NCBI GenBank assembly: GCA_946122785.1
Contig: CAMGYJ010000007.1
Span: forward strand, 39,705,587 to 39,769,586
DNA from: Linum tenue
Lineage: Eukaryota > Streptophyta > Magnoliopsida > Malpighiales > Linaceae
Length of the DNA: 64,000 nucleotides
Direction: 5' to 3'
A model generated the notes under the pieces. The model was not told the origin of the DNA. It made no database searches and saw only the letters and a list, made by a program, of their open reading frames with translations. This document shows positions 5,507 to 40,123 of this stretch, one piece after another. A program made the position numbers and the translations under genes. Position 1 is the first letter of the stretch. Each line of letters begins with the position of its first letter.

Positions 5507-6083
5507 TTAATGAATAAAAAAAGTAATTGTGAAGACCAAAATGTACGTCATTCCTACTTTCACTCTCGTTGCAGGAAATTTGAAATGGAGCTCCAGTTTT
5601 TCACTTCGGTGTATTATAGTATGTGTAGAGATAGGAATCTTCACGAACCACCCAAGAGTTTGGAAGAGCTGCAAACTATCTCGGAGACTAATTAGTATTT
5701 GCAGCATTGGGGGGGGGCGTCCAGGATGTTTGGCTTGACTTGAGGTACTGCGATTTGCTGTCAACTTCTTCCCATGTCTCACCTCATAACCATTCTCTTT
5801 CCCAACCTTCTGATTTGCTGCTTAAGAAGAAAATGGAAGAGAAAATATATCAACCAGTTGAGTTCATTGGAAATAAACATATGTTATTGGGATGAACAAA
5901 ACCAATGCTCAAGGATCTTATAAGCAACTTACTGATGATGAGAGGAGGGAGATGATTAGGAAGAAGGCGACCGTGTGCCGTCAAAGTATGAGACGACGAG
6001 ATCAAGAAGACAACTGTGAGCAGGAAAAAGCAGCTGCTGATCACTGTCCAAGTACCCGCCGCCTTACTCTTGTTGCTCATCAT
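5507..6083 (-). CDS. Small secreted peptide precursor D (two exons, SxS-type C terminus, possible frameshift)
   Basis: Exon 1 runs from ATG 6083 to 5933 and encodes 50 residues plus one base: a polar start, a hydrophobic core (WTVISSCFFLLTVVFLIS) and SSSHTLTAHGRLLP, a typical secretion signal. The donor is A|GTAAGTT and the acceptor is AAGCAG at 5818-5823. Exon 2 starts at 5817 and reads TNQKVGKENGYEVRHGKKL, then ANRSTSSQAKHPGR. The phase-1 donor, the length of exon 1 and the STS..A.H.GR core match the other three small genes here. After HPGR comes a run of nine C (plus-strand G at 5709-5717). As given, the frame runs on to 5507 with unlike sequence. With two fewer C it would stop at 5688, giving a family-sized product. 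A TATA-like TATATAT lies at 6116-6122, rather close to the ATG. Probably a secreted signalling peptide, perhaps frameshifted. Confidence 0.5.
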
Positions 6084-7571
6084 ATTTTTGCAGGAAAATT
6101 AAACAATAATAACTGTATATATGGTTGTTTCTCTTCACTTCTGATTGTTTCCCCCTCTGATAACTCAATCTTTTTCAGGGCCAAATTATAGACAGATATC
6201 GAAGTGGCTGGCGACCTTTGAATTTGTAGAAACCGTGTGTCTTTGTTTGTCTTCTCGATTGGTAAAATATTTTATTGCATACGGATAAAAGGCCCAACTA
6301 CCCGCGGTTTGACTCTGTGCTCATGTTTGTTTACTCTCCTTTATACGAAGAAAACTACATAAGACAAAAAAAAAATCATTCCTTTTCACACCCAATAAAG
6401 CATTCCAACATAGACTCAGAGATGAAACATGGATATGAAAATGGGGAGAGGAATGGAAGCCGATGTTATTTAGTGTATTATCTCGAAAATAATAAAAGAA
6501 TAAGGATATTAATATATTTAATTATTATAATGGCCTAAATGGTATTTTAATAAAAACAATTTAAAAAACTTTCATTTTTGCCATGTTCAAAATATAATAT
6601 GAAAACTAAAATCACCTGTTTTAGTATGGAGTATGTTTTTCAATATTTTTATGACTTGAAAATGAATGTATGGATATATTAGTGTTTAAAATTTAAATTA
6701 AATAATTATATAAAATATTAATCTTAAAATTGTGAATCAAAAACTTTGAATTACTTACCTGAGCTCGTTTGAAAATACATGACTTGTAAAAAACTATTCA
6801 AATTAAAGAATTAAATTGACACTTTGGTCATCAAAGGAATATTAGTATTTTAAAAACATCATATATACAAAAAACAATTAGAAAATATGAATTTAAAGTT
6901 GAAGAACTTAAATGACTTTGTTCGAAAATGCTTCACTTAAAAAACTAAATTCTTAAATTAAAAGATCAAGTTGACTCTTTGGTCAAAGAAATTTTAATAT
7001 TTAAAAACTATTTAATTATAAATCCAATAGAATTATAATATGAATTTAAAATTAAAGTATAACGACCTTGTTTGGAAGTAAAGGATTTAATAAACAAACA
7101 TTTAAGGTAATGGATTCAATAACTAATTGGTAAAATAATTAAATTTCGGTTAAAACAAAAAATTTGTTTCAAATAAGATTCAAACGCACACCACTATGCA
7201 ATAATGTTTCACTCGTGACAGTTGGTTGCTATGGTAACTTAAGATAAATCTAGGGTATTACATATTCTTAGTAGATAAAAGCTATCAAGTTGAACTTTGA
7301 ATGTGTAAACCCATTTGCCGCCGAACACAAGAATAGGAGGAGAGAGGTTGTTAGAAACCCTTTTCATTATTAAACAATAATTTGAGGATTGGTTATTTTT
7401 TCTATTTTCGGATTAATTCTAGTATTTTGTGTGGGTACTCAAAATAATTTGATTAAGGATTTCATGGGGAGAAATTATTAGGTACACTGAGAGTACCACG
7501 TAGGATTGGTGATGTGGTAATCTGATAGGGAAAGCGAGAACCCAGAACCACCATCGTTAGAGATCATGGCT
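6084..7571. other. Intergenic DNA dominated by a degenerate ~155-bp tandem repeat
   Basis: No gene is seen. From about 6590 to 7110 similar blocks recur: TTAGTGTTTAAAATTTAAAT (6679), TTAGTATTTTAAAAAC (6842), TTAATATTTAAAAAC (6993). Each is followed by 'AATATGAATTTAAA' and 'TTTGTTCGAAAATGC'-like text, giving spacings of about 160 and 152 bases. It looks like an old satellite-like array. Confidence 0.5.
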
Positions 7572-7987
7572 TCATATTTTACGTCTACGGGCATTGGCTG
7601 CCATGGAGCTGCAACTGAATTGAAAAATCACCACCACTTTCTTTTTTACAAAATCAATGGCTCGGGTCTTGAGTAACTCGTTGGAGTTAGCGGGCTTGCC
7701 CTTCCCCTTCTTAGCGTCAGCCTTGACGTGGTTGCGGTAGACTCGATCTTCTTGGTTGTAAGAAAACAGAGTAGTCTCTGAGGCAGGTCTCTTGATAGTA
7801 GGAGATTTAACTTTCTTTGCGGGAGTGAGATTTGGGGTTGCGAAGGGTGGAACGAGGAATGTCTCATATCTGAAATCGCTTGTAATAGGCTCTGGTGTTG
7901 TAGGCTTTGGCAAACACAACCAGAATGGTCTGTAATCTTCAGCATAAAGCAGTGGCAGAAGGTAGAGGCGGACGAAGGAAAAATCAA
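7572..7987 (-). pseudogene. Unrecognised gene fragment, two overlapping frames
   Basis: Two minus-strand frames (7572-7919 and 7646-7987) cover the same DNA. One is rich in Lys, Pro and Thr (PTTPEPITSDFRYETFLVPP, then KKGKGKPANSNELLKTRAID). The base composition is higher in GC than the flanks and codon-like, suggesting a captured or decayed coding piece. I do not recognise the family and assign no function. Confidence 0.25.
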
Positions 7988-8201
7988 GCGTTGGCGGTGC
8001 GGCGGAATGTATTGGGACCAGTGCTCGATGACGAAGTTGGCCTGGGTTGAAATGGGAAAGACGGGGGATTTTAAGCTATTGGTTTGAATTTTTATGATGG
8101 GGATGAAGAGTGGATTCAGGTTTTATGAGAAATAAGTTTTGGGAAAGCAAAGAAGGGTGGATTGCGGTAGGGCAAGGGCTTGAGGAGGGTTTGAGGGTGA
8201 G

Positions 8202-8564
8202 TGTCAGAAACACGCCCACCTTATTATTTTTAGTAGGATAACTATTATTATGGTTAGTAGATATTTAGTTCTATTAGGTTACTTGTTAGGGCTTTCTAGT
8301 AATTCCCTATAAATATTTACTTTGGTTTACGTCATAATCAATCAAGAAAAGTATTAAGTAAAATATCTCTCCTAAGCCCAATCTCGCTCAACTCTTAATT
8401 TCTATCCTCTCCTAATCCAAGGCTTCAGCCGATTCCTGATTCTATTCTGTTCTTCTCATCTAAATCCCTAATCCTTTCTCTCAACCCCTAAATCCCTTTT
8501 CACTACTAGTAATTGCGGGTGCCGAAGATTAGTCTCTAGAATCCCTAGAAGCGGGGTACTTTCA
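8202..8564 (+). repeat. 5' LTR of the 8.2-kb element
   Basis: 363 bp, TG...CA. It contains CCCTATAAATATTTAC near 8308, a likely TATA box, and ends in GCGGGGTACTTTCA directly before the primer site. Confidence 0.85.
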
Positions 8565-8565
8565 G

Positions 8566-8578
8566 TGGTATTAGAGCC
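8566..8578 (+). other. Primer binding site, tRNA-Met type
   Basis: TGGTATTAGAGCC, one base from the usual plant TGGTATCAGAGCC, starts one base after the LTR. Confidence 0.8.
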
Positions 8579-8591
8579 TGGTTGTGGCACC

Positions 8592-8936
8592 ATGGTTTCG
8601 ACCTATATTAAGTTCTCAATCAAAGAACTCATAAATATTCTTAAAATGAAGTTGGAAGCTGCAAGAACAGAGAGGGGTACAATCCCACATCCATCCATAG
8701 CTTGCACCGCAACCGGATCGATGATCGCAGAGATGGATTTCGATGATTGGTTGGAACAACCTGCGTTTCCAATCGATCCCGAGCGAGGTGGAACCACCGC
8801 CGCTGATAAGGACGAGAAAGCAGCTACTGTAGTAGAACTGCCAGCCACGAAATCATCACCAACGGTCGTCGCAATGAAGACCAAAGAGTTAGACAGGATG
8901 ACCGAAGCGATTAATGTTGCCGTTGCGCGAGAATGA
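8592..8936 (+). CDS. Short internal frame of the non-autonomous LTR element, unknown function
   Basis: The frame from ATG 8592 encodes about 114 residues, with KELINILKMKLEAARTERGT near the N terminus and an acidic/Ala-rich later part (DFDDWLEQPAFPIDPERGG). It occupies the gag position just after the primer site but shows no gag domain or zinc knuckle. Plus-strand frames in other phases follow (8976-9242, 9318-9650, 9897-10370), so an originally longer reading frame seems to have been broken by indels. It may be residual gag or captured host sequence; I cannot decide which. Confidence 0.35.
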   Translation: MVSTYIKFSIKELINILKMKLEAARTERGTIPHPSIACTATGSMIAEMDFDDWLEQPAFPIDPERGGTTAADKDEKAATVVELPATKSSPTVVAMKTKELDRMTEAINVAVARE

Positions 8937-12746: not shown

Positions 12747-14059
12747 TGATAATCGGTTTTAATATATCGGATTCTTGAATTTTATGTGACTATCCCATGA
12801 TATGTTTAAGCCGATTGGTGCTATTTTAGGGCTCCCTAACCCGAGAATGGTTGAAAAATCATTAGTGCCTAGTGCCATGAGTTTGATGTATTACAGGTGA
12901 AGAAAACACGAAAAAGAAGTTACACTGGCAAACAATTCTCGAATGCTGGGCTTAAAGCCCAGCTAGATGGGGATTAATAACATGGGCCTGGGGATTAATA
13001 ACATGGGCCAGGAAATGATGTGGGCCGAGGGTTGCTCCTCAGGGGGATTGGACAAGTTTTTGGGGACAGAGAATTAAAAGAGAGGGGGCCATTATTGGGA
13101 ATTTTTTGGACACGCAAGCTTGAGAGAGAATTGGGAACGAAATTCTCTGGGAGGCGGATTCTTTTGGGAAAAGAAAAGAGAGGGCGCAGCACAAGCGGGG
13201 GACGAGCTGGGACGAGGATTGGCGGCGCGGAGCTGGGACGAGAATTCTTTTGGGAATAGCAGCAGCGACGCGACGCGACGAGTTGCGCACGAGAGCAGTT
13301 GATCGCCGGGCATAATTCAATCAGTATTTTCTTTTCTCATGATTAGTTTGATGATGATTATAAACATGATTGTGTGTTTTATTTTCGTCATGAACTAAAT
13401 CCCGATTTCTGGGGGAAACATCATAGGATGTAGCTATTTTTGGATTTGATGGATTAATTCGTATTTCTTTTGCATGAAATTACTTAATGCTTTGTGTTGA
13501 CTGGCCACCAATACATTGATTTGTTGTTAATTAGGTTATTAGCGACAGTGAAACCCTAATAACTGAACATATTTCATGTGACATAGTAACTTATCGAAGC
13601 GACAGTGGATTAAATAAGGTGCTATGCGGTCTTAAATAGGATATCGATCTTCAGGCTAAATAATTAAGTCATTGAGCTACGACAGTAGGATTTGATTTAA
13701 TTGTTTAGTACGCAGTGATTCCCGACAGGGATAGCTAGCACAGTAGTGATATCCTGGCTGTAGAGATATGGATTAAATTGATTGGAATATGTGAATTAAT
13801 CTGGATAGTATAGGTAGTGAATCCTGGTGTTTCTCCCAGAGCTTTCTCCCATTGAATTTCTCCCGACTAGTTTACTTTGCTTAATTAGTTTAGTTATTTT
13901 GTTATTAGTTAATAATCTCATCAACCAAACCATTTTTCACCGATAGTTTGCTACATAGAATTGATAAATTATAAGGTTGTACCAGTCCCTGAGAGACGAT
14001 ACCCGGATTTCCGGTTTACTACAAGATAGGAATCGAGGCATTACGCTTTTGCCCTATCA
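12747..14059 (+). repeat. 5' LTR of element I
   Basis: 1,313 bp, starts TGATAATCGG and ends GCCCTATCA. A tandem copy of GGGGATTAATAACATGGGCC at about 12969-13010 is single in the 3' LTR. Open frames at 13020-13320 in this LTR recur in the other LTR and are not genes. Confidence 0.93.
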
Positions 14060-14065
14060 AGTTTT

Positions 14066-14083
14066 TGGCGCCATTGCCGGGGA
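14066..14083 (+). other. Primer binding site, tRNA-Asp type
   Basis: TGGCGCCATTGCCGGGGA lies six bases after the LTR, one base from the TGGCGCCGTTGCCGGGGA site usual in Athila/Tat elements. Confidence 0.88.
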
Positions 14084-14178
14084 CTGCCATACCTTATTTT
14101 TGTTGATTTTTGTGAGTGAACTTTTTTGATCTGGGTGTTAGTGTGCAGGTGAATTTTTCAGGTTTATCCTCCTTGTGC

Positions 14179-16956
14179 ATGCCAAGGAGGACGACTGGCA
14201 ATTTACTGCCACTTGATCCAGAGATAGAGAGGACCTGCCGACAGAACATGAAGCAGGTCAAGTTAGGGAAGCAGCCTACCACATCCACAACTCCTAGGCC
14301 TTCCCTAACCCAGAATCGTCAACTGAGAAGGCAGGTTTCACCACCTGTCATCCCGACACCGCCACCGCGCATCATCGAGCCGGACATCATGGCAGAACAG
14401 GATCGTTCGATCAGGGCTCGTCTGAATCGGAGGACTGGAGCCCGAGCTTCATGTGTGGTCATTCCGGCTGGGGATGCAAACATGGAGATTACCCCAACCT
14501 TCATCAATATGATCACTAATGGGTACACCTTCTCCGGGGCCAGCACTGAGGATCCTCATGAACATCTCCGCCGGTTTGCAAGCATTTGTGACACAATGAA
14601 GAGCCCGGCTGTGTCTGATGATGCCATCCGTCTTCGGATGTTCTCATTTTCTTTGCTGGGGAATGCATCACACTGGTTCCAGAACTTGACACCCCGTTCC
14701 ATCACGACATGGGGTCAGCTTGAGAAGACCTTTTTGGATAAGTAGTTTCCTCCTGCCAAGGCAATGAAGAGGCAAGAGGAAATTGTCACTTTTAAACAAG
14801 CTAAAGACGAAAGTCTGACCGAGGCATGGGAGCGCTATAAGGAGCTTCTAATGAGATGCCCGAGCCACGGTCTTGAAGATTGGAACGTGATTTCCATTTT
14901 CTTCAATGGAATTAGAAGACAATTCCGAGATGCTCTGAATAATGCTTCCCGGAATGGTTTCACAAGAATGGAGGCACCAGAAGCATATGAACTGGTGGAG
15001 AAGATATGCTCTGAAGATACTGAATGGGGAAGTGAGACCGGCATTCGAATGAGAGGAGGCTTGCATGAGATAGACAGAGTTGCAAGTCTAGAAGCAAAGA
15101 TTGATGCTAAGCTGGACTCCAAGTTCGATGCACTCGAACGAAGGCTGGCTAAGTTGGCTCTTGGTAGACAGGAGGAGGTTTCTTATTGCGAATTATGTGA
15201 AGGTGCTCATCATAGGGATCTATGTCCACTGGTGGCTGATCAGATGGAAGATGTGCACTATATCAACAATCAGCGAAATCAAGGCCAGGGTGGTATGTAT
15301 TCGAATACCTACAACCCACAATGGAGGAAGCATCCTAACTTTTCCTGGGCGAACAACAACCCAACTGGTGCTCGCAACATTCCACCTCCAGGCTTGCAGA
15401 AACAACAACCTCCACCTCAACCAGAGAAGAAACCACAACTTGAAGAATTGCTTCTGGCTCACATGCAGAAAACCGACAATAATCTGAAGGGCCTGGATCA
15501 ATTTGTCACTCAACAACTAGCCATCAACAATAATTTACAATCGTCTATGCTAGCTATGGAGAGGCAGATGGGACAGATGGCTCAAACTCTGGCGGATATG
15601 CAAGGTAGGATTCCTGGGACATTACCGGCTAATACCGAGAGGAATCCAAAGGATGCCATGGTTGTAGCAGTCACATTGAGGAGTGGGAAGGAGTTGGAGG
15701 ATCCAAAGAGCAAGAAAAATCCAGTAGAAAAGGAGGGCAAAGGAGCTGCAGAGATGGAGGATGAAGAAAGTGCAAAAGCTGAAAAATCTGACTTGCACAG
15801 GCAAACTGCATGCAATCTACCTGTGCAAAAGCAATCTGCCCGTGTACCTCAAATAGTGGAAAAATTGAAGAGCGAAGAGGTAAAGCCTTATGAACCTCCC
15901 GCACCATTCCCTCAAAGGTTAATGAAGCCCATGGAAGACCCAAACTTCAAGAAATTTGTGAATCTCTTCAACCAACTTCAGATTAACATACCACTGGCAG
16001 AGGCACTTGAACAGATGCCTACATATGCTAAATTTTTAAAGGAGTTGCTGATTAAGAAGCGCAAATGGACTGAGCTAGAGAAGGTAACCCTTACTTCTGA
16101 ATGTAGTGCTGTGATTCAGAATAAATTACCAGAAAAGAGGGATGATCCGGGCAGCTTCACCATTCCATGTGTCATTGGAGGTACAGAGTTCAATAAATCA
16201 CTTTGTGATCTTGGAGCATGAATAAATTTAATGCCATACTCAGTCTACAAGAAATTGGGATTGGGAGATGTTCTTAAGCCTACTCGGATCACTCTCCAAT
16301 TGGCTGATCGATCAGTAAAAATTCCAAAAGGAGTGGTGGAGAATGTATTGGTGAAGGTGGGGAAGTTTATTATCCCCACAGATTTTGTGATTTTGGAGAT
16401 GGAAGAAGATCGGGGAGTGCCTCTCATTCTTGGGAGACCTTTTCTAGCCACTGGTGATGCACTCATCGATGTCGGGAGAGGCAAGTTGACATTCCGAGTA
16501 GGTAAGGAGGAGGAAATTTTTAATGTCTTTCAAGTTGATTATAATCACGATGCATTTGATGACTTTGAAAGTGGAGCTCGAGAAAGGAAAAATCCCTCTT
16601 CCTGTGATAGTGGACCATCCGAAGAACTATCACCTATCCTATTTGCTCAAAGTCTGAAATCAAAACAAGGGCAAAAATCCTTGCCAGGGAACCTCAAGTA
16701 TAGATATTTGGGTAAGGATTTCAATCTTCCTGTTATTATTCCTTCTTCACTGACATTGAAACAGGAAGAGTACTTGCTTGAGGCGCTGCAGTACCACCTA
16801 CGCCTCACTAAGGGGTCCAACATGCAAACTAAGAAGGTCATACCCAATTTTCGCACACCTGGCCCTGCAGAGGTGACTCATATGTTGGAAGGAGGTTATG
16901 CATTCTATCATTGCTCGAGAGGGTATTCTGGATACCTTTCCATACCCATTGGTTGA
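14179..16956 (+). pseudogene. Athila-type gag-protease reading frame with two in-frame stops
   Basis: One reading frame from ATG 14179 (MPRRTTGNLLPLD) runs about 925 codons, interrupted only by TAG at 14743 and TGA at 16219. The retrotransposon gag domain spans roughly residues 120-270 (EDPHEHLRRFASICDTMKSP, then NASHWFQNL and WERYKELLMRCPSHGLEDW). A short knuckle CELCEGAHHRDLC sits near 335. A Gln/Pro-rich linker with NPQWRKHPNFSW is characteristic of Athila/Tat gag. The aspartic protease follows from about residue 675: CDLGA, then the TGA where Ser is expected, then INLMPYSVYKKLG and VPLILGRPFLAT. The end, RGYSGYLSIPIG, looks like the start of the reverse transcriptase 'DGYSGY.QIPI' motif, after which pol is absent. 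No translation of a full product is possible without readthrough. Confidence 0.88.
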
Positions 16957-18402
16957 AAGCTCCATGAACGTCAGGCTGAGGACGTTAAACAAGCGCTTCT
17001 TGGGAGGCAACCCAAGGTGAGTTTTCTTTTCTTTATTTTTTCTTTTTTGTTGTGTCAAACCCGTGCATGTTTAGAGTAGGAGTTGAACATTAGGGACAAT
17101 GTTCCATCCTGAGTGTGGGGTGGTGAGTCTTAGTGTTTGTTTGTCCCTATTGCATGTGGTAAAAAAAAACAAAAAACAAAAAAAATTGCCATTAGGTTGA
17201 GCACAGCCAAACTGCATGCAGTTTGCCTGTGCAAAAAGCAAGCTGCCTGTGCAAAGCTAATGGCTAAAAAACACCTAAAAATGAGAAAAATTAAAAACAA
17301 AACCTTGTACTCTTGTGGTAACATGATGTAAATGACCGTGATGCCTTGAAAATGAGTTTGTGCTTGAATGAAATCATCGAAATCACCCCACTAGTGTTGA
17401 ATTGCATGGTTCTTCACAATGAGCTTAAATGTTTTGACTGACTTGATATGCTTGGAATGAGCAACTCTTTTAGCAACAGTCTCTTTTGTGAGGATAGTGT
17501 AATGACTTTTGGTGAAGTAGTTAGGTGGAGAACATTGACCATTCGACATGTTTGGATACCGTGCTTACTTGCATCAATTGTGAGCTTTTGATTTGGCAAC
17601 GAGTCTCTCTATTTTGATTGTTTTATGATGGGGTGAACTGTATCTTTATAAATGAGAAAACACTACCTGACAAGTAAAATATAAGAAAGTTGCCATAATA
17701 ATTAAAGTGTGGGTAAAAATGCCAAAATCGTGTGAGGCAATCACTCATTGCACATGGGGATGAGGAAAGATTCAATTGAGAATCGGTTCGCGACCGTACG
17801 ATGTTGCTTATCAAGTACGATCCCCAGTTGAGTGAAGTGCCATTTGAGGATGCAATGACCCTCCACACGGACCGAGGAAAAGGAGTTAAAAGAAGCCCTT
17901 ATGCGAGTGCTAAGAAGCCGAAATTGCTCTTGCTCGGTCACCGGTAGTAAGAAACAAAAACCCACTTGTACTAAATACGACCACTCGGCAAGCAAAAGCA
18001 GAAAGAGAGAAAGCCTCTCCTTGTCATAAAAGGTAGTGATGTGCTTAAAGTAAAATCATGTTTGCGAAAGGCTTCCCCCATTAGTTTTTTGAGACTCATG
18101 CTTAATTAATTGCTTATGATTGGTGTAAGTAAGCCAGACTGTCCTCACGAGATATGCACCTCACTGATGTGGTTAGATTCTCCTAATAATTGTTGCACCA
18201 TAAGTTGTTAACCACCCACTACCGACCATTAAAGCACAACTTGTTCGTCGAGAAAGAAACTACTGATTACAACAAGAGTACAAGGAAATTTTGTGTTTTG
18301 CTTTGAGTGTTGAGTCTGTGGTGTGTCATTGTTTTGGATGGTTATGTGTTTGTGTTGTTTGAGTCGTTGCTTAGGGACAAGCAACAATTGAGTGTGGGGT
18401 TG
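16957..18402 (+). other. 3' non-coding part of element I with conserved hairpin and polypurine tract
   Basis: GACGTTAAACAAGCGCTTCT and TGGGAGGCAACCCAA (16981-17015) recur after the frame of element II. The TTGGGAGGCAACCCAA core folds into a perfect 5-bp stem. A first GAGTGTGGGGT motif is at ~17111, and a second (~18390) directly precedes the LTR and should be the polypurine tract. At 17205-17260 a near copy of gag sequence from ~15796-15835 occurs (CTGCATGCA..CCTGTGCAAAA words). No gene is seen. Confidence 0.7.
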
Positions 18403-20076
18403 TGATAATCGGTTTTAATATATCGGATTCTTGAATTTTATGTGACTATCCCATGATATGTTTAAGCCGATTGGTGCTATTTTAGGGCTCGCTAACCCGA
18501 GAATGGTTGAAAAACCATTACTGCCTAGTGCCATGAGTTTGATGTATTACAGGTGAAGAAAACACGAAAAAGAAGTTACACCGGCAAACAATTCTCGAAT
18601 GCTGGGCTTAAAGCCCAGCTAGATGGGGATTAATAACATGGGCCAGGAAATGATGTGGGCCGAGGGTTGCTCCTCAGGGGGATTGGACAAGTTTTTGGGG
18701 ACAGAGAATTAAAAGAGAGGGGGCCATTATTGGGAATTTTTTGGACACGCAAGCTTGAGAGAGAATTGGGAACGAAATTCTCTGGGAGGCGGATTCTTTT
18801 GGGAAAAGAAAAGAGAGGGCGCAGCACAAGCGGGGGACGAGCTGGGACGAGGATTGGCGGCGCGGAGCTGGGACGAGAATTCTTTTGGGAATAGCAGCAG
18901 CGACGCGACGCGACGAGTTGCGCACGAGAGCAGTTGATCGCCGGGCATAATTCAATCAGTATTTTCTTTTCTCATGATTAGTTTGATGATGATTATAAAC
19001 ATGATTGTGTGTTTTATTTTCGTCATGAACTAAATCCCGATTTCTGGGGGAAACATCATAGGATGTAGCTATTTTTGGATTTGATGGATTAATTCGTATT
19101 TCTTTTGCATGAAATTACTTAATGCTTTGTGTTGACTGGCCACCAATACATTGATTTGTTGTTAATTAGGTTATTAGCGACAGTGAAACCCTAATAACTG
19201 AACATATTTCATGTGACATAGTAACTTATCGAAGCGACAGTGGATTAAATAAGGTGATATGCGGTCTTAAATAGGATATCGATCTTCAGGCTAAATAATT
19301 AAGTCATTGAGCTACGACAGTAGGATTTGATTTAATTGTTTAGTACGCAGTAATTCCCGACAGGGATAGCTAGCACAGTAGTGATATCCTGGCTGTAGAG
19401 ATATGGATTAAATTGATTGGAATATGTGAATTAATCTGGATAGGATAGGTAGTGAATCCTGGTGTTTCTCCCAGAGCTTTCTCCCATTGAATTTCTCCCG
19501 ACTAGTTTACTTTGCTTAATTAGTTGGGCAATGTCTATTTTTTACCCAAACCTTTTTAAGATTCTTTTATTTTAACCAAACCTATAGAAATTCTATTTAT
19601 TATCCAAACGTATTATAATTTATAAAAGTCTGGGCATTCATTCTGTTACCGTTACTTATTTCGCCCACGTGAGAGGTGGGATTTTGTTTTGTTTTTTTAT
19701 AATCTTTTTATTAAAAATAGTAAATGATGGTATTCTGACTGCCACGTAGGAAGTCAACTCATTATGGTCATACTTAGTCAGCATTACTAACAGAAAAGTT
19801 GACGGAGAGTTAACGTTTGGATAATTTTTAGGAATTCAATAGGTTTGGTTAAAATAAAAGAATCTGAAAAAGGTTTGGGTAAAAAATAGACATTGCCCTA
19901 ATTAGTTTAGTTATTTTGTTATTAGTTAATAATCTCATCAACCAAACCATTTTTCACCGATAGTTTGCTCCATAAAATTGATAAATTATAAGGTTGTACC
20001 AGTCCCTGAGAGACGATACCCGGATTTCCGGTTTACTACAAGATAGGAATCGAGGCATTACGCTTTTGCCCTATCA
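18403..20076 (+). repeat. 3' LTR of element I (with nested MITE)
   Basis: Starts TGATAATCGG and ends GCCCTATCA. It is 1,674 bp including the 373-bp MITE and its extra 9-bp duplication, so the LTR proper is about 1,292 bp. Confidence 0.93.
19526..19898. mobile_element. MULE-type MITE nested in the 3' LTR
   Basis: 373 bp with inverted ends GGGCAATGTCTATTTTTTAC. Exact 9-bp duplications TAATTAGTT lie at 19517-19525 and 19899-19907, and comparison with the other LTR shows the unfilled site. It inserted after element I. Confidence 0.93.
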
Positions 20077-21042: not shown

Positions 21043-21372
21043 CTATGGAGTCCCGTGACCTCCCCCGCCTGATTTACTTGGTTTCACAGCAATTTTCATC
21101 AATCGCTGGATTTGTTGGAGACGCAGCATCTGCTTCCCAGTCTCTTCTTCCCCCTTCAAATCTGCCAAATACAGAAGATGATTCAGCACTCCCCTCTCTA
21201 GATCGGAATACAAGAAGAGTACGTTATAATCAAAGAGACAGTCATCATTCATACACTTACTGCTACTGGTGTCTGGGAGATATGCAATCCGTCGAGCCAA
21301 GGAAGCCTGGGAGGAAGAGGCAATGACTAGAAACAGGACAAAGCTTATCACCATCGTGCAACGGATTGCCAT
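21043..21372 (-). CDS. Small secreted peptide precursor C (two exons, PSKSGGGGHG C terminus)
   Basis: Exon 1 runs from ATG 21372 to 21261: MAIRCTMVISFVLFLVIASS is a clear signal peptide, followed by SQASLARRIAYLPDTSS. The donor A|GTAAGTG and the acceptor TTTGGCAG at 21162-21169 bound a 99-base intron. Exon 2 (21161-21043) encodes LKGEEETGKQMLRLQQIQ and ends RLMKIAVKPSKSGGGGHGTP. The spliced product is 76 residues. The intron length is a multiple of three and open, so an unspliced 109-residue form is also possible. The C terminus has the Ser-x-Ser core plus Gly/His tail of SCOOP-like peptides; the PS..GGGGH order also recalls PIP peptides. A TATAAATAG box lies 109 bases upstream of the ATG. 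Likely role: secreted, processed signalling peptide perceived by a receptor kinase (inference). Confidence 0.62.
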   Translation of the reverse strand: MAIRCTMVISFVLFLVIASSSQASLARRIAYLPDTSSSKCMNDDCLFDYNVLFLYSDLERGVLNHLLYLADLKGEEETGKQMLRLQQIQRLMKIAVKPSKSGGGGHGTP

Positions 21373-24510: not shown

Positions 24511-25609
24511 CGTCAATTAGCCGCAGGTCTTCCTCGCTCAATCAGGTGTTCGCCGCTCGTTCCAAACTGCAGAATCTCGGCACGGTAAACTCCACATCAG
24601 CGGGCCGTCAATGCCTTCCTCCGCTGAGCAGCAAGCGTCAGTCCCTGTTCCCAAAATTGTCCGCTGAGAAATGGATATCCTGCCGTGCTGCGGGAAGGAG
24701 AAAGCAAAACGTAGATAACCCCGGAGAAAATGGAAGATGATTTCAGCCGCAAAAAAAGTAGTGGGAACCGACGGTTTCTTATCTCTCCTGTTAGGCCGGG
24801 ATTTTTAATTTAATCCCGTGTAACCACCTTGCCACGTCAGACTCCTAAAATCACTCTATGCGCAGAAAAATTTGAATGGGGGTTGCAGTTTTACTTTTCA
24901 GCTATAAATTATACTGTTGATTCTACACGTGCAACGCGGCTGCCATATATTATTATAAAAATTGAAGATGCTGGGTTGAAATTTTGGTCAACTAATTTGT
25001 GATTTGGCCATCAATTTTAAACTTACAGTTATGCTGTTAGTTAGTATAACCCATGCCCACCTCGCTTGGGATAGATTCAGTAACAGCTTGGTTACTGATC
25101 TGTCGTCAGTAATAAATAAGGACTGTAGATTTAGGGGCGAAGCAATGATGTGGTAGGGCTGGACATGAGGTGGGGAAGGGTATTTTTGTCCGTTTCTATA
25201 TTAATTTTTATTTTATTTTATCCTACATTTAATGACTACCTTTTAAAAAAAGGAGAGAGAACTCTGCAACTCTCATTTCTCTCTTTCTTCTCTCCTTCTT
25301 TTTCTCTCTCACTCTTCTTTTCAAATTCGTTCTCTTTCTCTCTTCCTTTTTCTTTTCCAATCTCTTTTTTCATATGTAGATCTGTCCCTTCTTTTCTTCA
25401 TTTTTTTCTCCAGCAATTAACGAATAAAATTGCAGTCACTCTCTTTCATTGCATTTCTTCTCTCCATCAACTCGTTGGCCTCAATTCCGATCTTTCTCAT
25501 TTTTTCGGCATTTTGGTGCTCTTGATTGCGGAAGAGGAAATGAGAGACGACAGAAGACGATCTTTTTTCTCTCCCTCCTTCTGTTTTTTCCTTTTAGATA
25601 ATATATATT
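24511..25609. other. Intergenic DNA, pyrimidine-rich tract
   Basis: No gene. 25262-25600 is strongly CT-rich (TCTCTCTTTCTTCTCTCC-like). The plus-strand frame over it is low-complexity Phe/Ser/Leu. A weak Helitron-like end (TTAGTATAACCCATGCCCAC) lies at ~25041 without the right flanking base. Confidence 0.35.
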
Positions 25610-25815
25610 GCTATTATGACTCTATACCATATGATATTGTGTGGTAACGAAATATATATTGATATTACCACACTATACCATATGGTATTGTGTAGTAACG
25701 AAATATATATTGATATTACCACATTATATCATTTGGTATTGGGTGATAACGAAATATATATTGATATTACCACACTATACCATATGGTATTGGGTGGTAA
25801 CGAAATATATTGATG
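25610..25815 (+). repeat. 51-bp tandem repeat, about four units, each with a palindrome
   Basis: AACGAAATATATATTGATAT recurs at 25646, 25697, 25748 and 25799 (51-base steps). Each unit holds a palindrome of the type ACTATACCATATGGTATTGT. 51 is divisible by three, so a frame through it reads a 17-residue repeat. Confidence 0.85.
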
Positions 25816-26095
25816 TGGCAAATTTTTTCATACCATACGGTATAGTCTTATTTAATACCAGTCAATACCATATGGTATAGACTGATAATAACTGGCAAAT
25901 TTTTTTTGTCCAAAATACCATATGTTATAGACTGGTATACCCTAAATCCATGATTATTCACCTTAATGGCTAAAGACTAACATATCCACATAAAAAAAAT
26001 CTGATGCGATTTTACCCTAAATGAGTCTTTACTTTGTAAAAGAGGTTTGTCTTTCCATTTTCCTTCGCTCAAACTCTTTTTTGAGTTTTTCTCTA
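25816..26095. repeat. Dispersed ATACCATATGGTAT palindromes
   Basis: ATACCATACGGTATAG, ATACCATATGGTATAGACTG and ATACCATATGTTATAGACTG recur between 25830 and 25940, extending the palindrome theme of the tandem array. The rest is anonymous. Confidence 0.6.
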
Positions 26096-26242: not shown

Positions 26243-27016
26243 GGATTTTGCTACGGTGACATGCACTTTTCGGTCGACCTCATATAAGATTAGGTCGACC
26301 TAATCTGTTGTTTCAGTGTAAAAATAGTTTCATGGTGCCTACTTTGGAGATTCATATCTTACAATTGGCTAGATGGAAATTGGCGATTAATGGCTTGTTT
26401 TGAAGCTGAAGTGTCCCTCTACAAATTAAAGTACTTGGGAGCTTGATAGGAAGTTCAGAAGACCATTTTGAACCTGATCAAAAAGGCTATGCCAAAACTG
26501 GGAAACTGCCTGAAAATGGCTAAGTTTGGGAACGTGTTTGTGAAGCCTACTTTGGAGCTCAATTTGAGAAGCATGGATGCGAGTCTAGTCCAGCGACCTC
26601 TACCAAGTTAAATTAATTATTTTCTTATACAAATTCAAATCACATTCATGCTTCTCGAATTGAGCTCCAAAATAGGCTTCACAAACACGTTCCCAGACTT
26701 GGCCATTTTCAGGCAGTTTCCCAGTTTTGGCATAGCCTTTTGATCAGGTTCAAAAATGGTCACTTGGACTTCCTATCGAGCTCTCAATTACTTCAATATG
26801 TAGAGGGACACTCTAGCTTCAAAACAATCCATTAATCTTCAATTTCCATCTAGCCAATTGCATGATATGAATCTCCAAAGTAGGCACCATAAAACTGTTT
26901 TTACACCGAAACAACAGTTAGGTCGACCTAATGCTAAATGAGGTCGACCTAATCCTAACTGAGGTCATCCGAAAAGTGCAAGTCACCATGACATGCATGT
27001 CACCTTAGGCGCACCC
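26243..27016. mobile_element. Foldback element, 774 bp, with ~320-bp inverted arms
   Basis: Left arm ~26255-26575 and right arm ~26660-27000 are near reverse complements (for example GGTCGACCTAATCTG... and the complementary AACAGTTAGGTCGACC; GCTATGCCAAAACTGGG and CCCAGTTTTGGCATAGC), around an ~80-base centre. Exact 9-bp duplications TATAGTTTA lie at 26234-26242 and 27017-27025. A transcript would fold into a long hairpin. Confidence 0.9.
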
Positions 27017-31165: not shown

Positions 31166-31530
31166 TTAGTTTCCCCTTCCATGGGGAGCTTGTCTTGAAG
31201 TACTTCCGCTAGTACCTACTTTGGATTGTTCCAAAAGCAATTCATCACCCTTCTCCCCGCGGCTTCTCTTCTCACCATAATTCACACCACCTGCTGAAAT
31301 AGTAAAGAAGCCATATCATCAGAACTTGCATGCATTGGCCAAAGTAATTAAGGAGGGTAATTAGTCAGGGTTTTTGGCTTACTTGGTTTTTGGTTAAGTA
31401 GCCGTCGATGTTGATGATCAGCCATAATCAGAGGCTGGGACGAGAAGGCCATTAACATGACCAAGAAGATGATCGTCATCACCATCATGTATCTAACCAC
31501 CATTGATATTCTTCCACTATCAACACCCAT
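31166..31530 (-). CDS. Small secreted peptide precursor A (two exons, GSTSRQAPHGRGN C terminus)
   Basis: Exon 1 (31530-31383) encodes MGVDSGRISMVVRYMMVMTI, then a hydrophobic run to MLMAFSSQPLIMADHQHRRL; this is a signal peptide followed by a basic RRL. Donor A|GTAAGCC; acceptor CTATTTCAG; 89-base intron (31294-31382). Exon 2 (31293-31166) encodes GGVNYGEKRSRGEKGDELLL, EQSKVGTSGS and the end GSTSRQAPHGRGN. The product is 91 residues with no other domain. Gene B at 39.75 kb is a paralogue with the same exon borders and an almost identical last 11 residues, while the middle differs. That pattern suits a pre-propeptide whose conserved C terminus is released outside the cell. The Ser-Thr-Ser core points to SCOOP-like peptides; the HGRGN end recalls PIP or CLE types. 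No pathway assignment beyond 'secreted signal' is safe. Confidence 0.68.
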
Positions 31531-35056: not shown

Positions 35057-35209
35057 GTATTTTTTTGCCGCATTTTCTTTGTCCTTTAGTGGGGGAGAGG
35101 AGGCTATTAACTGGAGGAAGGGGGATTTGGATGACGGAATACGAGATTGAGCTGGGGGAGGAATAATTTGAGTGCAATCAGAGCGCGACGATCGCGAGCA
35201 CAGCCACTA

Positions 35210-35955
35210 GCCCACTAGAGAGAAGCAGCGAATTGAGAAGAAAATTGAATCGAACAACATACAATAATTCAGTATTATTTTCCTTTTGCTTTGATTCGTG
35301 AGATGATGATTAATAACATGATTGTCTGTTATATTTTCGTCATGAACTAAACCTCAATTTATGGGCAAACGCCATTGATATAGGTATTTTTAGACTTGAT
35401 GAATTGATTAATATTTCCTTTCTTCCAATATCTATTGCATGGAATCGCTTAATGCTTTGTGTTGATTTTCCACCAATACAATGATTCGTAGTTAGTTAGG
35501 TTACTAGCGACAGTGAAACCCTAATAACTGAACCTATTTCATGTGACATGATAACTTATCCAAGCGACTGTGAATTAAATAAGTTGTTATGTTGTCTTAA
35601 ATAGGATATCGATCTTCAGGCTAAACAGTTAATGCGTTTAGCTACAACAGTAATATTTGATTTAATTGTTTAGTACGTAGTAATTCCCGACGGGGATAGC
35701 TAGCACAATATAGATATCCTAGCTGTAGAGATATGGATTAAACTTATTAGAAAATATGAAATAATTTTGATATGATAGGTAGTGAATCCTGATGTTTGTC
35801 CCAGAGCTTTCTCTCATTGATTTCAACCCAACAACTTTAATTTGCTTGTTTTGTTTAATTATTTTGCTATTAGATAATAGTTTCATTGCTCAAACCATTT
35901 TTACAACTTATACCAGTACCTGAGAGACGATACCCGGATTTCCGGTTTTATTACC
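35210..35955 (+). repeat. Old, truncated LTR of the element I family
   Basis: It follows 13300-14045 of element I in order (TTTTCGTCATGAACTAAA, AATGCTTTGTGTTGA, GCGACAGTGAAACCCTAATA, TAGGATATCGATCTTCAGGC, GAGACGATACCCGGATTTCC) with many substitutions and small indels. Both LTR ends are missing. Confidence 0.85.
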
Positions 35956-36854
35956 CTATTTTAATGATCAAATACTTTAGTGTGACCATTGTAAACCATT
36001 GTTTAATCAATAATTTGGTGGCATTATGTTCTTATAATAACCAAACCAATGGCCACATTTTTAATAACCGAAGTAATGATCACACTTAGAATATATATAT
36101 GGTTACCATAAAGTAATAATCATGATAAGAGTTCCATAATCGGTATTTTTTTGTTACTTAATGATGATTAAATTAGTTGATGAAAATATTTTTATGATCA
36201 AATTTATTGGTTTCGGATAAAAAACTTTATCACTAAACCATATGGTCAATTTAGACTGGTTATTTATGACCAATTGCGTTCCTTTGAAAAATATTTATTC
36301 ATGAACATTACAAATTTTGGTCATCAAAATATGATATATTGTGCCCAAATCCAAAATCTAGTCAGAAAAATTGTTTTTCTAATGGGGCAAATGTGACTAA
36401 AGTCTTAGCCAAATAAATTTGATCACCCAATAATTTTGCTACCAAAATTTAACATATATTACCAATAATTTTGTTTTTCTTGTTACTAAAACCCAGTTTT
36501 ATTTTAGGGTGTTGACGAATATTTTAACTGAGTTGGAATGTCTATGCAAATCAACAAGGGCATTATTGATCTGCTATCTTCCGAAGATCAAGTTTGGACT
36601 GATATTCTTGGGAAATGAGCATACAAGAGATTTTAGAGAGAGAATCAAACCATTTTAAATGTCATTACCTTGACATTCCCATTATTTACAGTCGAAAGGT
36701 CTCCGACATCTTTCCTACTATTTTACGGGTCGATATCGCAACGTTAATGCTCCATACTCTCCATTAGTTGTGCGCCTTGATGACAAATTACTAATGCATA
36801 CTATAGCAGGCACATGACGGATGATCACCAGCGGGGACTCATATTGTAACTTGT
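35956..36854. other. AT-rich DNA, no gene; diverged copy of a gene A flank
   Basis: About 36685-36745 (CCCATTATTTACAGTCGAAA, CTCCGACATCTTTCCTACTA) matches 32020-32083 upstream of gene A. It may be the trace of a further lost copy of the duplicated unit. Confidence 0.45.
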
Positions 36855-37590
36855 GCTTTGAAGTTACTATAATTTGACATTTTTTACCTGCTATAGCAGG
36901 TTTTATAGGTCGCGTAACGTAAAACTAATGTTTATAACGTAACAATTACGTAATGCTTGTTAGTCTTACGTAACAGTTAAAATAGAAGCATTACGGAAGG
37001 TTTCCGTAACGACTTATCATTTTACGTAACGCTAGAATTATTACATAAAGCTTCCGTAATGACATTTTAAAACTGTTACATAAAATACACGCTCATTACG
37101 TAAAGGTTACGTAACGAAGGTTATTTCTTACGTAACAGTTAAATTAGAAATGTTACGTAAGACTTCCGTAATGACTTACCACATTACGTAACTTGATTAA
37201 TATCATTACGTAAAAGGACCATCCATTACGTAAGGCTTCCGTAATGCCACTTTACAACTGTTACGTAAAGTATGCATCTATTACGTAAAGGTTACGTAAC
37301 GATAGTTATTTCTTACGTAACAGTTAAATTAGAAGTGTTACGTAAGCCTTCCGTAATGATTCAACAGATTACGTAACGAAAGGTTAATATTCATTACGTA
37401 AAATGAGTGTCTATTACGTAAGGTTTCCGTAATGACATTTTTCAACTATTACGTAAGATAAACACACATTACGTAACCATTACGTAATGCCTATTGTATT
37501 TTACGTAATGCGACTTGTGAAGCCCGTTACCATTATAGCAGGTAAAAAACATCAAGTTACCATAACTTCAAATTATTGTAGGAATTTCGT
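36855..37590. mobile_element. ACGTAA-rich element with internal tandem units
   Basis: Left TGAAGTTACTATAATTTGACA and TTTTTTACCTGCTATAGCAGG face right TATAGCAGGTAAAAAACAT and CCATAACTTCAAAT. GTAACTTGT flanks both sides (36846-36854, 37591-37599). Inside, ATTACGTAA/TTACGTAACG occurs about thirty times in larger units of 162-185 bases marked by ACGTAACAGTTAAA (36968, 37130, 37315). Confidence 0.7.
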
Positions 37591-37757
37591 GTAACTTGTT
37601 CTCGTTATATGCGAGTCGTGCTCAGCACCAGCGGATGGGCTTATGGGCTTTTCTTTACTTTTGGATCGAGTGAGACAGTGAGTTATATCATCTTCATGAG
37701 TTTTTTTTACACTGGCCGTCTTCTTAGGATTTCGCCTACGGACGTGTTTTCCAATTC

Positions 37758-38633
37758 CGAACGGCTATTTGCCGCCAAACAAATTGCTATTTGCCGCCAA
37801 CTAAAAAAAAACAAAAAAAAAGTATATATGTACATCCTTGGTTAAGAAGTTTCACAATCTACAACATATTCAACTTTCAGAAAATGTATTGAATCAGAAA
37901 AAATCGACGCTCGCCGGAAAAGTCGTCGGAAAACCATCGGGAAAGCCCAGTGCCTCTGTCGCCGGCACCGTTCCTCCGTCGCCGGCCAACCTCCCGTCGT
38001 CCTCAATCGTCGGAAAACAAATAAGTTTACTTTTTCCGGCAATTTTTTCAATTTTCCGGCAATTTTTCCAGTTTTCCGGCGAAAAACACGGTGGGCCGAA
38101 AAAAATTTGTGGCCGGAACGCCGCCGGGCCGAAAAAAATTTTCGGCCGGCGCGACGCCCAGCCGAAAAATTCTTTCGGCCAGGCGGCGTTACGGCCGCAA
38201 AATTTTTTCGGCCGGTCGCCGAACGCGCCGCTGTAAATTTTTCCGGCCACAAGATTTTTTCGGCCCGGCGGCGCGCCGGCCGCAAATTTTTTTCGGCCCA
38301 CCGTCTTTTTCGCCGGAAAACTGGAAAAATTGCCGGAAAATTGAAAAACTTGCCGGAAAAAGTAAACTTACTTGTTTTCCGACGATTGAGGACGACGGGA
38401 GGTTGGCCGGCGACGCAGGAACGGTGCCGGCGACGGAGGCACTGGGCTTTCCCGATGGTTTTCCGACGACTTTTCCGGCGAGCGTCGATTTTTTCTGATT
38501 CAATACATTTTCTGAAAGTTGAATATGTTGTAGATTGTGAAATTTCTTAACCAAGGATGTACATATATACTTTTTTTTGTTTTTTTTAGTTGGCGGCAAA
38601 TAGCAATTTGTTTGGCGGCAAATAGCAAGCCCC
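37758..38633. mobile_element. Large, nearly perfect palindromic element, 876 bp
   Basis: Arms of ~430 bases meet near 38195 with almost no spacer. Open frames are mirrored: both strands read LVKKFHNLQHIQLSENVLNQ. Outer ends carry GGCTATTTGCCGCCAAACAA and complement. Flanks TTCCAATTC (37749-37757) and TTCCAATTA (38634-38642) are 8/9 identical. The centre is full of GGCCGAAAAAATTT/AAATTTTTTCGGCC words. The mirrored frames are not genes. Confidence 0.85.
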
Positions 38634-39749
38634 TTCCAATTATCTTGTTGATTTGCGACATTTTACACACTGTAGTCTCCGTTGGAAGTTCAGTCAAATA
38701 TGCATGTTACTGCTGTGGAAATTGTTCACGTATACTATTTTTTTGCAACACAAGTAAACATAAAAGATTAAGAAAAAACATGCAAAGACACATGCAAGCG
38801 TCCTAGCGATAGAATTCACTATCTCTCCTTAAAGAATCTTATTCCCCTCTAGTACCCAAGGTTATGGAATGATTCCTCCCAGGATAAAAAGGACGTACCT
38901 TTTCTGGCTTAGCGGTACCTCAAACCCCGGAAACCATCGAACGCAGCGAACCGGCGAGAGCCACACTTGACTCGATTTTCTCTTTGAAAAGAATGCAAAA
39001 TAATAGTTTTGGATTTTGACATAATTTTAGTACCGGGAAAAACCGACGTAAAAATCAGAGGGGGTTAGGTGCTATTTATAGAAAATGAAGGGGTGTGGAC
39101 GAAGGGAGGCGACTCTTCATATGGGTGGTTACACCCCAACCAACACATTGGTTCATGTTTGAAATAATGAACCATTGCATCGGTTCAGCCCATGGTAGTT
39201 GGACCGGTTTGATTATTCCAACCGCCACATTGGTTTGGTTCGATTTGGTTCAACTCGGTTTGGTTTGGTCCGTTTGGTACACAAACCAATTTAACCGATT
39301 AACCGCATATTACATCAAATCGATCGAATTCGAGGCTGTGCCTTCCCACATCTTACCAACATGGTACTTCAAGAGACTCTCTTGAAACTTTCCCTTTTTA
39401 TTTCCATTCACACCACTAAAAATCCCTAAGAGTTACGCCTCTATCCTTGTCGTTCTCTCTGGGTTTTGCTAGATGCATGTCCCCAGACAGGGCTCGTGTG
39501 GTTCGCAGAAAGTTGGTCAATAGTATACTTGATGTGCATTATACTGTGTGTATATGTTTTTGTAAGCTTCTTGTTATAACAGAAATAGTTACTATATAAT
39601 TGTGAAGCAAATTAAACATCTTAACTCTGATCATATTTGTTTTTTTTTATAGTTACAATAATAATATATAGTGTTTGATACAATGAAAGTGAAGCGAGTG
39701 TTGAATTGAATTAGGTAGCTATATATCTAGCTAGCTAATTCATGGGGAG
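38634..39749. other. Intergenic DNA including the 3' flank of peptide gene B
   Basis: 38880-39400 has no recognised feature except GGTTTGGTT/AACCGGTTT-like words (39190-39300). 39550-39749 is homologous to the 3' flank of gene A. Confidence 0.4.
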
Positions 39750-40123
39750 CTAGTTTCCCCTTCCATGGGGAGCTGGTCTCGAAGTACTTCCGTTAGTTAC
39801 TATTTTGGATTGTTCCAAAAGCAATTGATCACCCTTCTCCCCGTGGCTTCTGTAGTTCTCAGCATAAATCACACCACCTGAAAGTAAAAGAAGCCATATA
39901 TGGATAAAATCAGAACTTGCATTCATGCATGCATGGGCGCCAAAGTAATTAAGGAGGGTAATTAGTTATAGGGTTTTGCCTTACTTTGTTTTGAAGTGCC
40001 TAGCCGTCGATGTTGATCAGCCATGATCAAAGGCTCGGAGGAGAAGGCGGCCACTAACAGGATTAAGCTGATCATCATCATGTATCCAACCACCATTGAT
40101 ATTCTTCTACTATCAACACCCAT
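39750..40123 (-). CDS. Small secreted peptide precursor B (paralogue of A, GSTSRPAPHGRGN C terminus)
   Basis: Exon 1 (40123-39985) encodes MGVDSRRISMVVGYMMMISL with a hydrophobic run ending AAFSSEPLIMADQHRRLGTS. Donor A|GTAAGGC; acceptor TTACTTTCAG; 107-base intron (39878-39984). Exon 2 (39877-39750) encodes SGVIYAENYRSHGEKGDQLL, LEQSKIVTN and the end GSTSRPAPHGRGN, then TAG. The product is 88 residues. Exon borders, phase and exon 2 length (128 bases) equal those of gene A. Both start and end are conserved, so both copies look intact. The duplication includes about 300 bases of promoter and about 200 of 3' flank. Same functional reading as A: secreted precursor with a C-terminal mature peptide (inference). 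Confidence 0.68.

What the first reader, a model, noticed from the sequence alone, without database searches (positions are those of the whole stretch)
5507..40123. Dispersed tandem cluster of four tiny secreted-peptide genes with a shared Ser-x-Ser C terminus
Seen: four minus-strand loci (5.5-6.1, 21.0-21.4, 31.2-31.5, 39.75-40.1 kb), each with a signal-peptide exon of 37-50 codons ending in an A|GTAAG donor (phase 1), a short intron, and an exon 2 ending NRSTSSQAKHPGR, PSKSGGGGHGTP, GSTSRQAPHGRGN or GSTSRPAPHGRGN. Known: SCOOP precursors are short, secreted and share an SxS core; PIP precursors end in a G.GH-type motif. Inference: this is a diversified phytocytokine precursor cluster pulled apart by transposons. 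SCOOPs are described mainly from Brassicaceae, so a cluster elsewhere would be notable.
Basis: partly seen in the sequence, partly recalled or inferred. Interest (0 to 1): 0.88.

Follow-up and report, generated by a model that had tools for sequence, protein, structure and literature searches.

The report
SCOOP-like peptide gene cluster in flax
A plant of the flax genus carries four small predicted genes, spread among jumping genes, whose tails resemble the SCOOP alarm peptides reported so far only from the cabbage order; they likely make secreted stress signals of that kind and would offer candidate ligands for a receptor family whose own peptides are unknown outside that order.

Summary
The four minus-strand, two-exon models are there. 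Each has a hydrophobic N-terminal exon ending A|GTAAG (phase 1), an 89-115 nt intron and an exon 2 with Ser-x-Ser. Two corrections: locus 1 reads on 69 codons past its motif, and locus 2 is open even unspliced. The host is Linum (Malpighiales): the window's ALP1-like gene groups with L. trigynum at 100/100, outside Brassicales. A profile built only from Brassicaceae SCOOPs ranks the exon-2 frames of loci 3, 4 and 2 first, second and third of 2036 six-frame ORFs; locus 1 is 125th. Column-permuted profiles reach that joint result for loci 2-4 in 0 of 400 trials. PIP, IDA, CEP, CLE and Pep profiles rank loci 2-4 lower. The intron fits PROSCOOP genes; Arabidopsis PIP/IDL genes have none. No relative outside Brassicaceae was found, so common descent and convergence are both open. 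Expression, processing and receptor are untested. If real, this is a SCOOP-type cluster outside Brassicales, against the published 'Brassicales-exclusive' statement.

The parts
5933..6083 (-). locus 1 exon 1: hydrophobic N-terminal exon, 50 codons + 1 nt
   Evidence: hydropathy
5818..5932 (-). locus 1 intron, 115 nt, phase 1 (alternative acceptor 3 nt earlier)
5507..5817 (-). locus 1 exon 2; reads 69 codons past the motif
5717..5755 (-). locus 1 motif NRSTSSQAKHPGR (SxS; SxSSQA shared with SCOOP12)
21261..21372 (-). locus 2 exon 1: hydrophobic N-terminal exon, 37 codons + 1 nt
21162..21260 (-). locus 2 predicted intron, 99 nt, phase 1; frame also open through it
21043..21161 (-). locus 2 exon 2, ends KPSKSGGGGHGTP-stop
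21046..21081 (-). locus 2 motif PSKSGGGGHGTP, 8 of 12 identical to SCOOP10#2
31383..31530 (-). locus 3 exon 1: hydrophobic N-terminal exon, 49 codons + 1 nt
31291..31382 (-). locus 3 intron, 89 or 92 nt (two acceptors 3 nt apart), phase 1
31166..31290 (-). locus 3 exon 2, ends GSTSRQAPHGRGN-stop
31169..31207 (-). locus 3 motif; tail 9 of 18 identical to SCOOP10#1 without gaps
39985..40123 (-). locus 4 exon 1: hydrophobic N-terminal exon, 46 codons + 1 nt
39878..39984 (-). locus 4 intron, 107 nt, phase 1
39750..39877 (-). locus 4 exon 2, ends GSTSRPAPHGRGN-stop
39753..39791 (-). locus 4 motif GSTSRPAPHGRGN
12747..20076 (+). LTR retrotransposon with gag between loci 1 and 2; LTR pieces 97.6-98.9% alike
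26269..26952 (.). foldback element between loci 2 and 3
35264..35902 (.). relic of the same LTR (81-82%) between loci 3 and 4
37764..38626 (.). foldback element (long inverted repeats) between loci 3 and 4
53732..55078 (-). intact ALP1-like (harbinger-derived) gene used to place the host in Linum

Best explanation
In a Linum (flax-genus) genome, four predicted two-exon genes likely encode secreted precursors of SCOOP-type peptides, whose C-terminal Ser-x-Ser tails would be cut out in the apoplast and sensed as stress or immune signals, probably by a MIK2-clade receptor kinase with a SERK co-receptor. Shown: the reading frames, splice signals, hydrophobic N-terminal exons, SxS tails, the duplication of loci 3 and 4, mobile elements between the loci, and the host placement. 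Inferred: secretion, cleavage (by analogy with subtilase cleavage of PROSCOOPs; locus 2 has QRLM and locus 1 GKKL just upstream of the tail, against GR(K/R)LM in Brassicaceae SCOOP10-type precursors), receptor and role. Whether the genes descend from a common PROSCOOP ancestor or became SCOOP-like independently is open.
For: [quoted passage not shown] Gully 2019 reports 14 genes with two or three exons, 72-117 aa, in two tandem clusters, one holding transposon vestiges (PMC6382344 passages). Tail matches (24 comparisons, uncorrected): locus 3 vs SCOOP10#1, ungapped, 9 of 18 identical, shuffle P 0.001; locus 4 vs SCOOP10#1 P 0.0055; locus 2 vs SCOOP10#2, 8 of 12, P 0.0035. Profiles from Brassicaceae SCOOPs only rank loci 3, 4, 2, 1 at 1, 2, 3, 125 of 2036 ORFs; motif-1 copies alone put loci 3 and 4 at 1 and 2; motif-2 copies alone put locus 2 at 1. 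Column-permuted all-SCOOP profiles reach the joint ranks of loci 2-4 in 0 of 400 trials. Loci 3 and 4 stay open after duplication and differ in 2 of the last 13 codons. N-terminal hydropathy 2.8-3.1 vs 3.2 for the A. lyrata SCOOP10-type protein. Published context: MIK2-clade kinases exist and are expanded in families said to lack SCOOPs (PMC12507258, one section read).
Against: No transcript, peptide or receptor data. No relative outside Brassicaceae: locus 3 shares no three 5-residue words with any protein of suitable length in the database, which holds many plants, and the motif profile gave 5 proteins at E up to 10 among 84 candidates, 4 named as Brassicaceae and one unnamed with the published SCOOP10 peptides. 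Part of the profile signal is composition: with the all-SCOOP profile, single-locus permutation P is 0.037 (locus 3), 0.027 (4), 0.13 (2), 0.14 (1); the motif-2 profile's joint result for loci 2-4 is reached by 46 of 400 permutations. A SCOOP12-only profile ranks loci 1-4 at 56, 118, 330 and 853. A HMMER profile ranks loci 3, 1, 4 at 2, 5, 10, none significant (best E of any ORF 0.76), and leaves locus 2 out of the 14 shown. Locus 1 is long, its match to SCOOP12 has P 0.10, and an IDA profile ranks it higher (86th) than the all-SCOOP profile does (125th). Locus 2 does not need its intron. Locus 4 matches AtPIP1 (P 0.0015) slightly better than SCOOP10#1 (P 0.0055). Snoeck 2024 reported PROSCOOPs only in Brassicales after searching 350 proteomes.
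Confidence: 0.55

Rival explanations
1. They are Linum-specific secreted peptides of another kind whose serine- and glycine-rich tails resemble SCOOPs by chance or convergence, and another receptor reads them.
For: No homologue outside Brassicaceae; permuted profiles show that composition alone lifts these ORFs (median ranks 22, 41 and 60.5 of 2036 for loci 2, 3 and 4); locus 1 is weak; the tail of locus 2 does not significantly resemble the other three.
Against: Ungapped matches to two different SCOOP10 peptides, joint permutation 0 of 400, and the PROSCOOP exon layout.
Confidence: 0.27
2. They are PIP/IDA-type peptides (RLK7 or HAE-type receptors) that have lost the canonical core.
For: Locus 4 SRPAPHGRGN is 6 of 10 identical to AtPIP1 SGPSPRGRGH, P 0.0015; a PIP profile ranks loci 4, 2, 3 at 4, 20, 22 of 2036.
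Against: No SGPS, no terminal GxGH, and an intron in each model, whereas none of the Arabidopsis IDL/PIP/PIPL genes has introns (PMC4526919 passages). The all-SCOOP profile ranks loci 2, 3 and 4 better.
Confidence: 0.1
3. Some or all are decayed or unexpressed copies, and the models are partly artefacts.
For: No transcripts; locus 1 runs on past its motif through a nine-C run; locus 2 open without splicing.
Against: Consensus splice signals at the same phase in four loci; loci 3 and 4 both stay open at Ks 0.23, with exon lengths differing by 9 and 3 nt.
Confidence: 0.08

Closest known systems
PROSCOOP10-type precursors / SCOOP10#1 and #2 (Arabidopsis thaliana, A. lyrata, Camelina)
   Same: secreted precursor, exon 1 = signal peptide, SxS in C-terminal motif; locus 3 tail like motif 1 (GTxxSTSxxAP), locus 4 in part, locus 2 tail like motif 2 (PSxSGxGGxxTP)
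   Different: host is Linum; one motif per gene (PROSCOOP10 has two); Lys at -6 and His at +7 shared by the Linum tails; no detectable full-length similarity
PROSCOOP12 / SCOOP12 (PVRSSQSSQAGGR)
   Same: locus 1 shares SxSSQA and a later G-R
   Different: match not significant alone (P 0.10); locus 1 has a long extra C-terminal stretch
PIP1 / PIPL peptides (RLASGPSPRGRGH)
   Same: locus 4 shares S.P.P.GRG in register
   Different: no SGPS, no GxGH end, genes have a predicted intron

Membership tests
PROSCOOP/SCOOP | N-terminal signal peptide | tested here: inconclusive
   Hydropathy only: strongest 12-residue window 2.8-3.1 in 4 of 4; SignalP not available
PROSCOOP/SCOOP | two coding exons: signal peptide, then motif | tested here: met
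   4 of 4 models by splice signals and frame; locus 2 also open unspliced; no transcripts
PROSCOOP/SCOOP | SxS in the C-terminal motif | tested here: met
   4 of 4
PROSCOOP/SCOOP | precursor of about 72-117 aa | tested here: inconclusive
   76, 90 and 88 aa for loci 2-4; locus 1 is 153-154 aa
PROSCOOP/SCOOP | no cysteine in the propeptide | tested here: met
   exon 2 of 4 of 4 models lacks Cys; unspliced locus 2 would hold two more Cys
PROSCOOP/SCOOP | positional match to Brassicales SCOOP motifs | tested here: met
   3 of 4: loci 3, 4, 2 rank 1, 2, 3 of 2036 ORFs, locus 1 125th; HMMER hits not significant
PROSCOOP/SCOOP | subtilase site (RRLM type) upstream of the peptide | tested here: inconclusive
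   QRLM in locus 2, GKKL in locus 1, none near the tail in loci 3 and 4 (read; site from PMC13157962)
PROSCOOP/SCOOP | linkage or sequence continuity with known PROSCOOP loci | tested here: inconclusive
   no intermediate homologue found; synteny not testable, plant genomes not held
PROSCOOP/SCOOP | MIK2-dependent perception | not testable with these tools
   needs peptides and plants
PIP/PIPL | SGPS core | tested here: not met
   0 of 4
PIP/PIPL | GxGH at the extreme C terminus | tested here: not met
   0 of 4; ends are HGTP, GRGN, GRGN and, for locus 1, an unrelated tail
PIP/PIPL | gene without introns | tested here: not met
   intron predicted in 4 of 4; none in Arabidopsis family members

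The most novel reading that the evidence does not exclude
The SCOOP ligand system is not a Brassicales invention: flax-genus plants carry their own diversified PROSCOOP cluster, which supplies the missing endogenous ligands of MIK2-clade receptors outside Brassicales, either by descent from a rosid ancestor or by independent origin of the same SxS key.
Probability: 0.42. Interest if true: 0.82.

Novelty: new variant of a known kind. Interest (0 to 1): 0.66.

Why it matters
SCOOPs are described as exclusive to Brassicales, and a 2025 review names the ligands of MIK2-clade receptors elsewhere as an open question. MIK2 homologues have even been proposed as self-incompatibility candidates at the hazel S-locus, with their function there unclear (PMC8921776 passages). 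Four short, synthesisable Linum peptides would make the question directly testable, and would show whether a large immune-peptide family is older than thought or arose twice.

Tried and rejected
Pfam: two matches for the four proteins, FtsL at E 0.12 and archaeal pilin at E 0.09, both far below their cut-offs and dismissed. Rfam: none in the window at gathering scores. Protein search with locus 3: no candidate. Protein search with the motif alignment: 84 candidates, 5 at E up to 10, all carrying SCOOP10-type motifs. Further copies in the window by tblastn and blastn: apart from loci 3 and 4 finding each other, no convincing one. Own genome: the tool did not complete. IDA, CEP, CLE and Pep profiles: best rank 30 of 2036 (locus 2 with CEP1). 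Arabidopsis PROSCOOP intron phase: not stated in the text searched. Papers on MIK2-clade receptors (PMC13443293) and on the MIK2-SCOOP structure (PMC11649560) are not held. Literature searches (listings seen, passages of some papers read) showed no report of plant SCOOPs outside Brassicales; the library is open-access only. One suspicious listing, a hazel paper, was checked: its passages speak of MIK2 homologues, not of hazel SCOOPs. Structure prediction was not run: no partner can be added, and SCOOP10#2 is reported largely unstructured.
Full report
WHAT IS THERE. Four minus-strand loci were read and modelled. Each starts with an ATG exon rich in hydrophobic residues and ends that exon with A|GTAAG, one base into a codon. 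Introns are 115, 99, 89-92 and 107 nt. Exon 2 carries the tail. The proteins are 153-154, 76, 90 (91 with the other acceptor) and 88 residues. The tails, aligned on Ser-x-Ser, are KKLTANR-STS-SQAKHPGR, MKIAVKP-SKS-GGGGHGTP, SKVGTSG-STS-RQAPHGRGN and SKIVTNG-STS-RPAPHGRGN. In the three lineages (loci 3 and 4 counted once) Lys at -6, the two serines and His at +7 are invariant; 6 of 300 shuffles reach four invariant columns. Pairwise, locus 1 resembles loci 3 and 4 (P 0.016, 0.011); locus 2 does not significantly resemble the others (P 0.70, 0.21, 0.10).

CORRECTIONS. Locus 1 does not end at its motif: the frame continues 69 codons, through a nine-C run. Published PROSCOOP motifs are also not at the extreme C terminus (PMC6382344 passage), but this locus is the least certain of the four. 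Locus 2 is open without splicing (121-codon ORF); its intron rests on its donor and acceptor signals and on agreement with the other three loci.

LOCI 3 AND 4. They are duplicates: 70% over about 800 nt, promoter stretch included. Ks is 0.23, Ka 0.14, ratio 0.61. Both frames are open and the exon lengths differ by 9 and 3 nt; the alignment was made on the proteins, so it could not have shown other indels. Two of the last 13 codons differ, with one amino-acid change. This suggests retained coding function, weakly constrained outside the tail.

THE HOST. The window's intact ALP1-like gene is 89% identical to a Linum trigynum protein, 78% to one of L. perenne, and at most 73% to the other listed hits that cover 98% or more of it (120 of 245 hits listed). 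A tree of it with 16 of those hits puts it with L. trigynum at 100/100, next to L. perenne (94/94), apart from Carica, Tarenaya, Camelina and Brassica. One gene carries this placement. The closest record is not identical, so the window is probably another Linum species, or this gene is a paralogue.

WHAT IT RESEMBLES. Published SCOOP peptides came from paper passages: SCOOP12 PVRSSQSSQAGGR (PMC6382344; PMC8984487), SCOOP10#1 SAIGTPSSTSDHAPGSNG and SCOOP10#2 GDIFTGPSGSGHGGGRTPAP (PMC9784617). Ungapped local scores against 2000 tail shuffles (24 tail-peptide comparisons, uncorrected): locus 3 vs SCOOP10#1 P 0.001; locus 4 vs SCOOP10#1 P 0.0055; locus 2 vs SCOOP10#2 P 0.0035; locus 1 vs SCOOP12 P 0.10; locus 4 vs AtPIP1 P 0.0015. 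After correction for 24 tests only locus 3 vs SCOOP10#1 and locus 4 vs AtPIP1 stay under 0.05. A wider panel of 15 peptides gives the same picture.

PROFILE TEST. Full-length Brassicaceae precursors came from the third protein search. A position-specific profile from nine Brassicaceae motif copies, with no Linum sequence in it, was run over all 2036 six-frame ORFs of 20 or more codons. Down-weighting near-identical copies, loci 3, 2, 4, 1 rank 1, 2, 4, 114. With equal weights loci 3, 4, 2, 1 rank 1, 2, 3, 125. Motif-1 copies alone rank loci 3, 4, 2, 1 at 1, 2, 26, 164; motif-2 copies alone rank loci 2, 3, 4, 1 at 1, 60, 108, 500; SCOOP12 alone ranks loci 1, 2, 3, 4 at 56, 118, 330, 853. Permuting profile columns keeps composition. 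The joint ranks of loci 2-4 are reached by 0 of 400 permutations with the equal-weight profile, 2 of 400 with motif 1 and 46 of 400 with motif 2; the joint ranks of all four are reached by 1 of 300 with the weighted profile. Singly, the equal-weight P values are 0.037, 0.027, 0.13 and 0.14 for loci 3, 4, 2 and 1, so composition contributes. A HMMER profile gives ranks 2, 5 and 10 for loci 3, 1 and 4, none significant, and locus 2 is not among the 14 shown. Rival profiles: PIP ranks loci 4, 2, 3, 1 at 4, 20, 22, 965. IDA, CEP, CLE and Pep (sequences recalled) reach 30 at best, for locus 2 with CEP1; for locus 1 alone IDA (86th) beats the all-SCOOP profile (125th) but not SCOOP12 alone (56th).

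ARCHITECTURE AS DISCRIMINATOR. Most PROSCOOP genes have two coding exons, signal peptide then motif. No Arabidopsis IDL/PIP/PIPL gene has an intron (PMC4526919 passages). Four predicted introns at one phase therefore favour the SCOOP side. The Arabidopsis intron phase could not be found in the text searched.

CLUSTER AND MOBILE ELEMENTS. Between loci 1 and 2 sits an LTR retrotransposon with gag (12747-20076; LTR pieces 97.6-98.9% alike). A foldback element lies between loci 2 and 3 (26269-26952). Between loci 3 and 4 lie a relic of the same LTR and a second foldback element. Beyond locus 4 is a direct repeat pair of 1332 bases, 99.9% alike, next to reverse-transcriptase remains. The Arabidopsis chromosome 5 PROSCOOP cluster also holds transposon vestiges.

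LIKELY WORKING, marked. Shown here: frames, splice signals, tails, duplication, elements, host. Predicted: entry into the secretory path (hydropathy only). Inferred from the family: cleavage upstream of the tail by subtilases (locus 2 QRLM, locus 1 GKKL; no such site near the tail in loci 3 and 4), proline hydroxylation, and binding of the SxS by a MIK2-clade kinase with a SERK partner. MIK2 binding needs the SxS in Arabidopsis (PMC8448819 passages).

NOVELTY. Snoeck 2024 (abstract and passages) found 1,097 putative PROSCOOPs in 32 species, all Brassicales, from 350 proteomes; whether Linum was among them was not seen. Reviews of 2025-2026 repeat the restriction, to Brassicales or Brassicaceae (passages). 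The listings showed no report of plant SCOOPs outside Brassicales. Homology is not proven, so this is filed as a SCOOP-like variant, not as a confirmed PROSCOOP family member.

Noticed in passing
44386-45717 and 48886-50217: Direct repeat pair of 1332 bases, 99.9% identical, flanking about 3 kb with a 405-codon ORF without Pfam match; copia-type reverse-transcriptase remains lie just outside (43673-43918): probably a very young LTR insertion.
   Followed up: partly
12747-20076: LTR retrotransposon with gag; its right LTR carries an insert with 86-nt inverted repeats at 19526-19898.
   Followed up: partly
37764-38626 and 26269-26952: Two foldback elements with long imperfect inverted repeats.
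   Followed up: no
25549-25854: Tandem repeat with 51-base spacing, several units.
   Followed up: no
5337-5402 and about 5552-5617: A stretch of the long C-terminal extension of locus 1 resembles DNA just downstream of the gene (tblastn 59% over 22 residues, E 0.13), which hints that the extension may not be old coding sequence.
   Followed up: no
1103-1587: Broken frames that by eye resemble a plant 2-oxoglutarate dioxygenase; Pfam finds nothing in the longest piece.
   Followed up: partly
56985-57212: Fragment of a hAT transposase dimerisation region.
   Followed up: no
upstream of 31530 and 40123: The duplication of loci 3 and 4 includes about 300 bases of promoter (65% identity over aligned bases), with the shared stretch CACCGCGTTnAGGTGGCTTTTAATTTCCTA.
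   Followed up: partly
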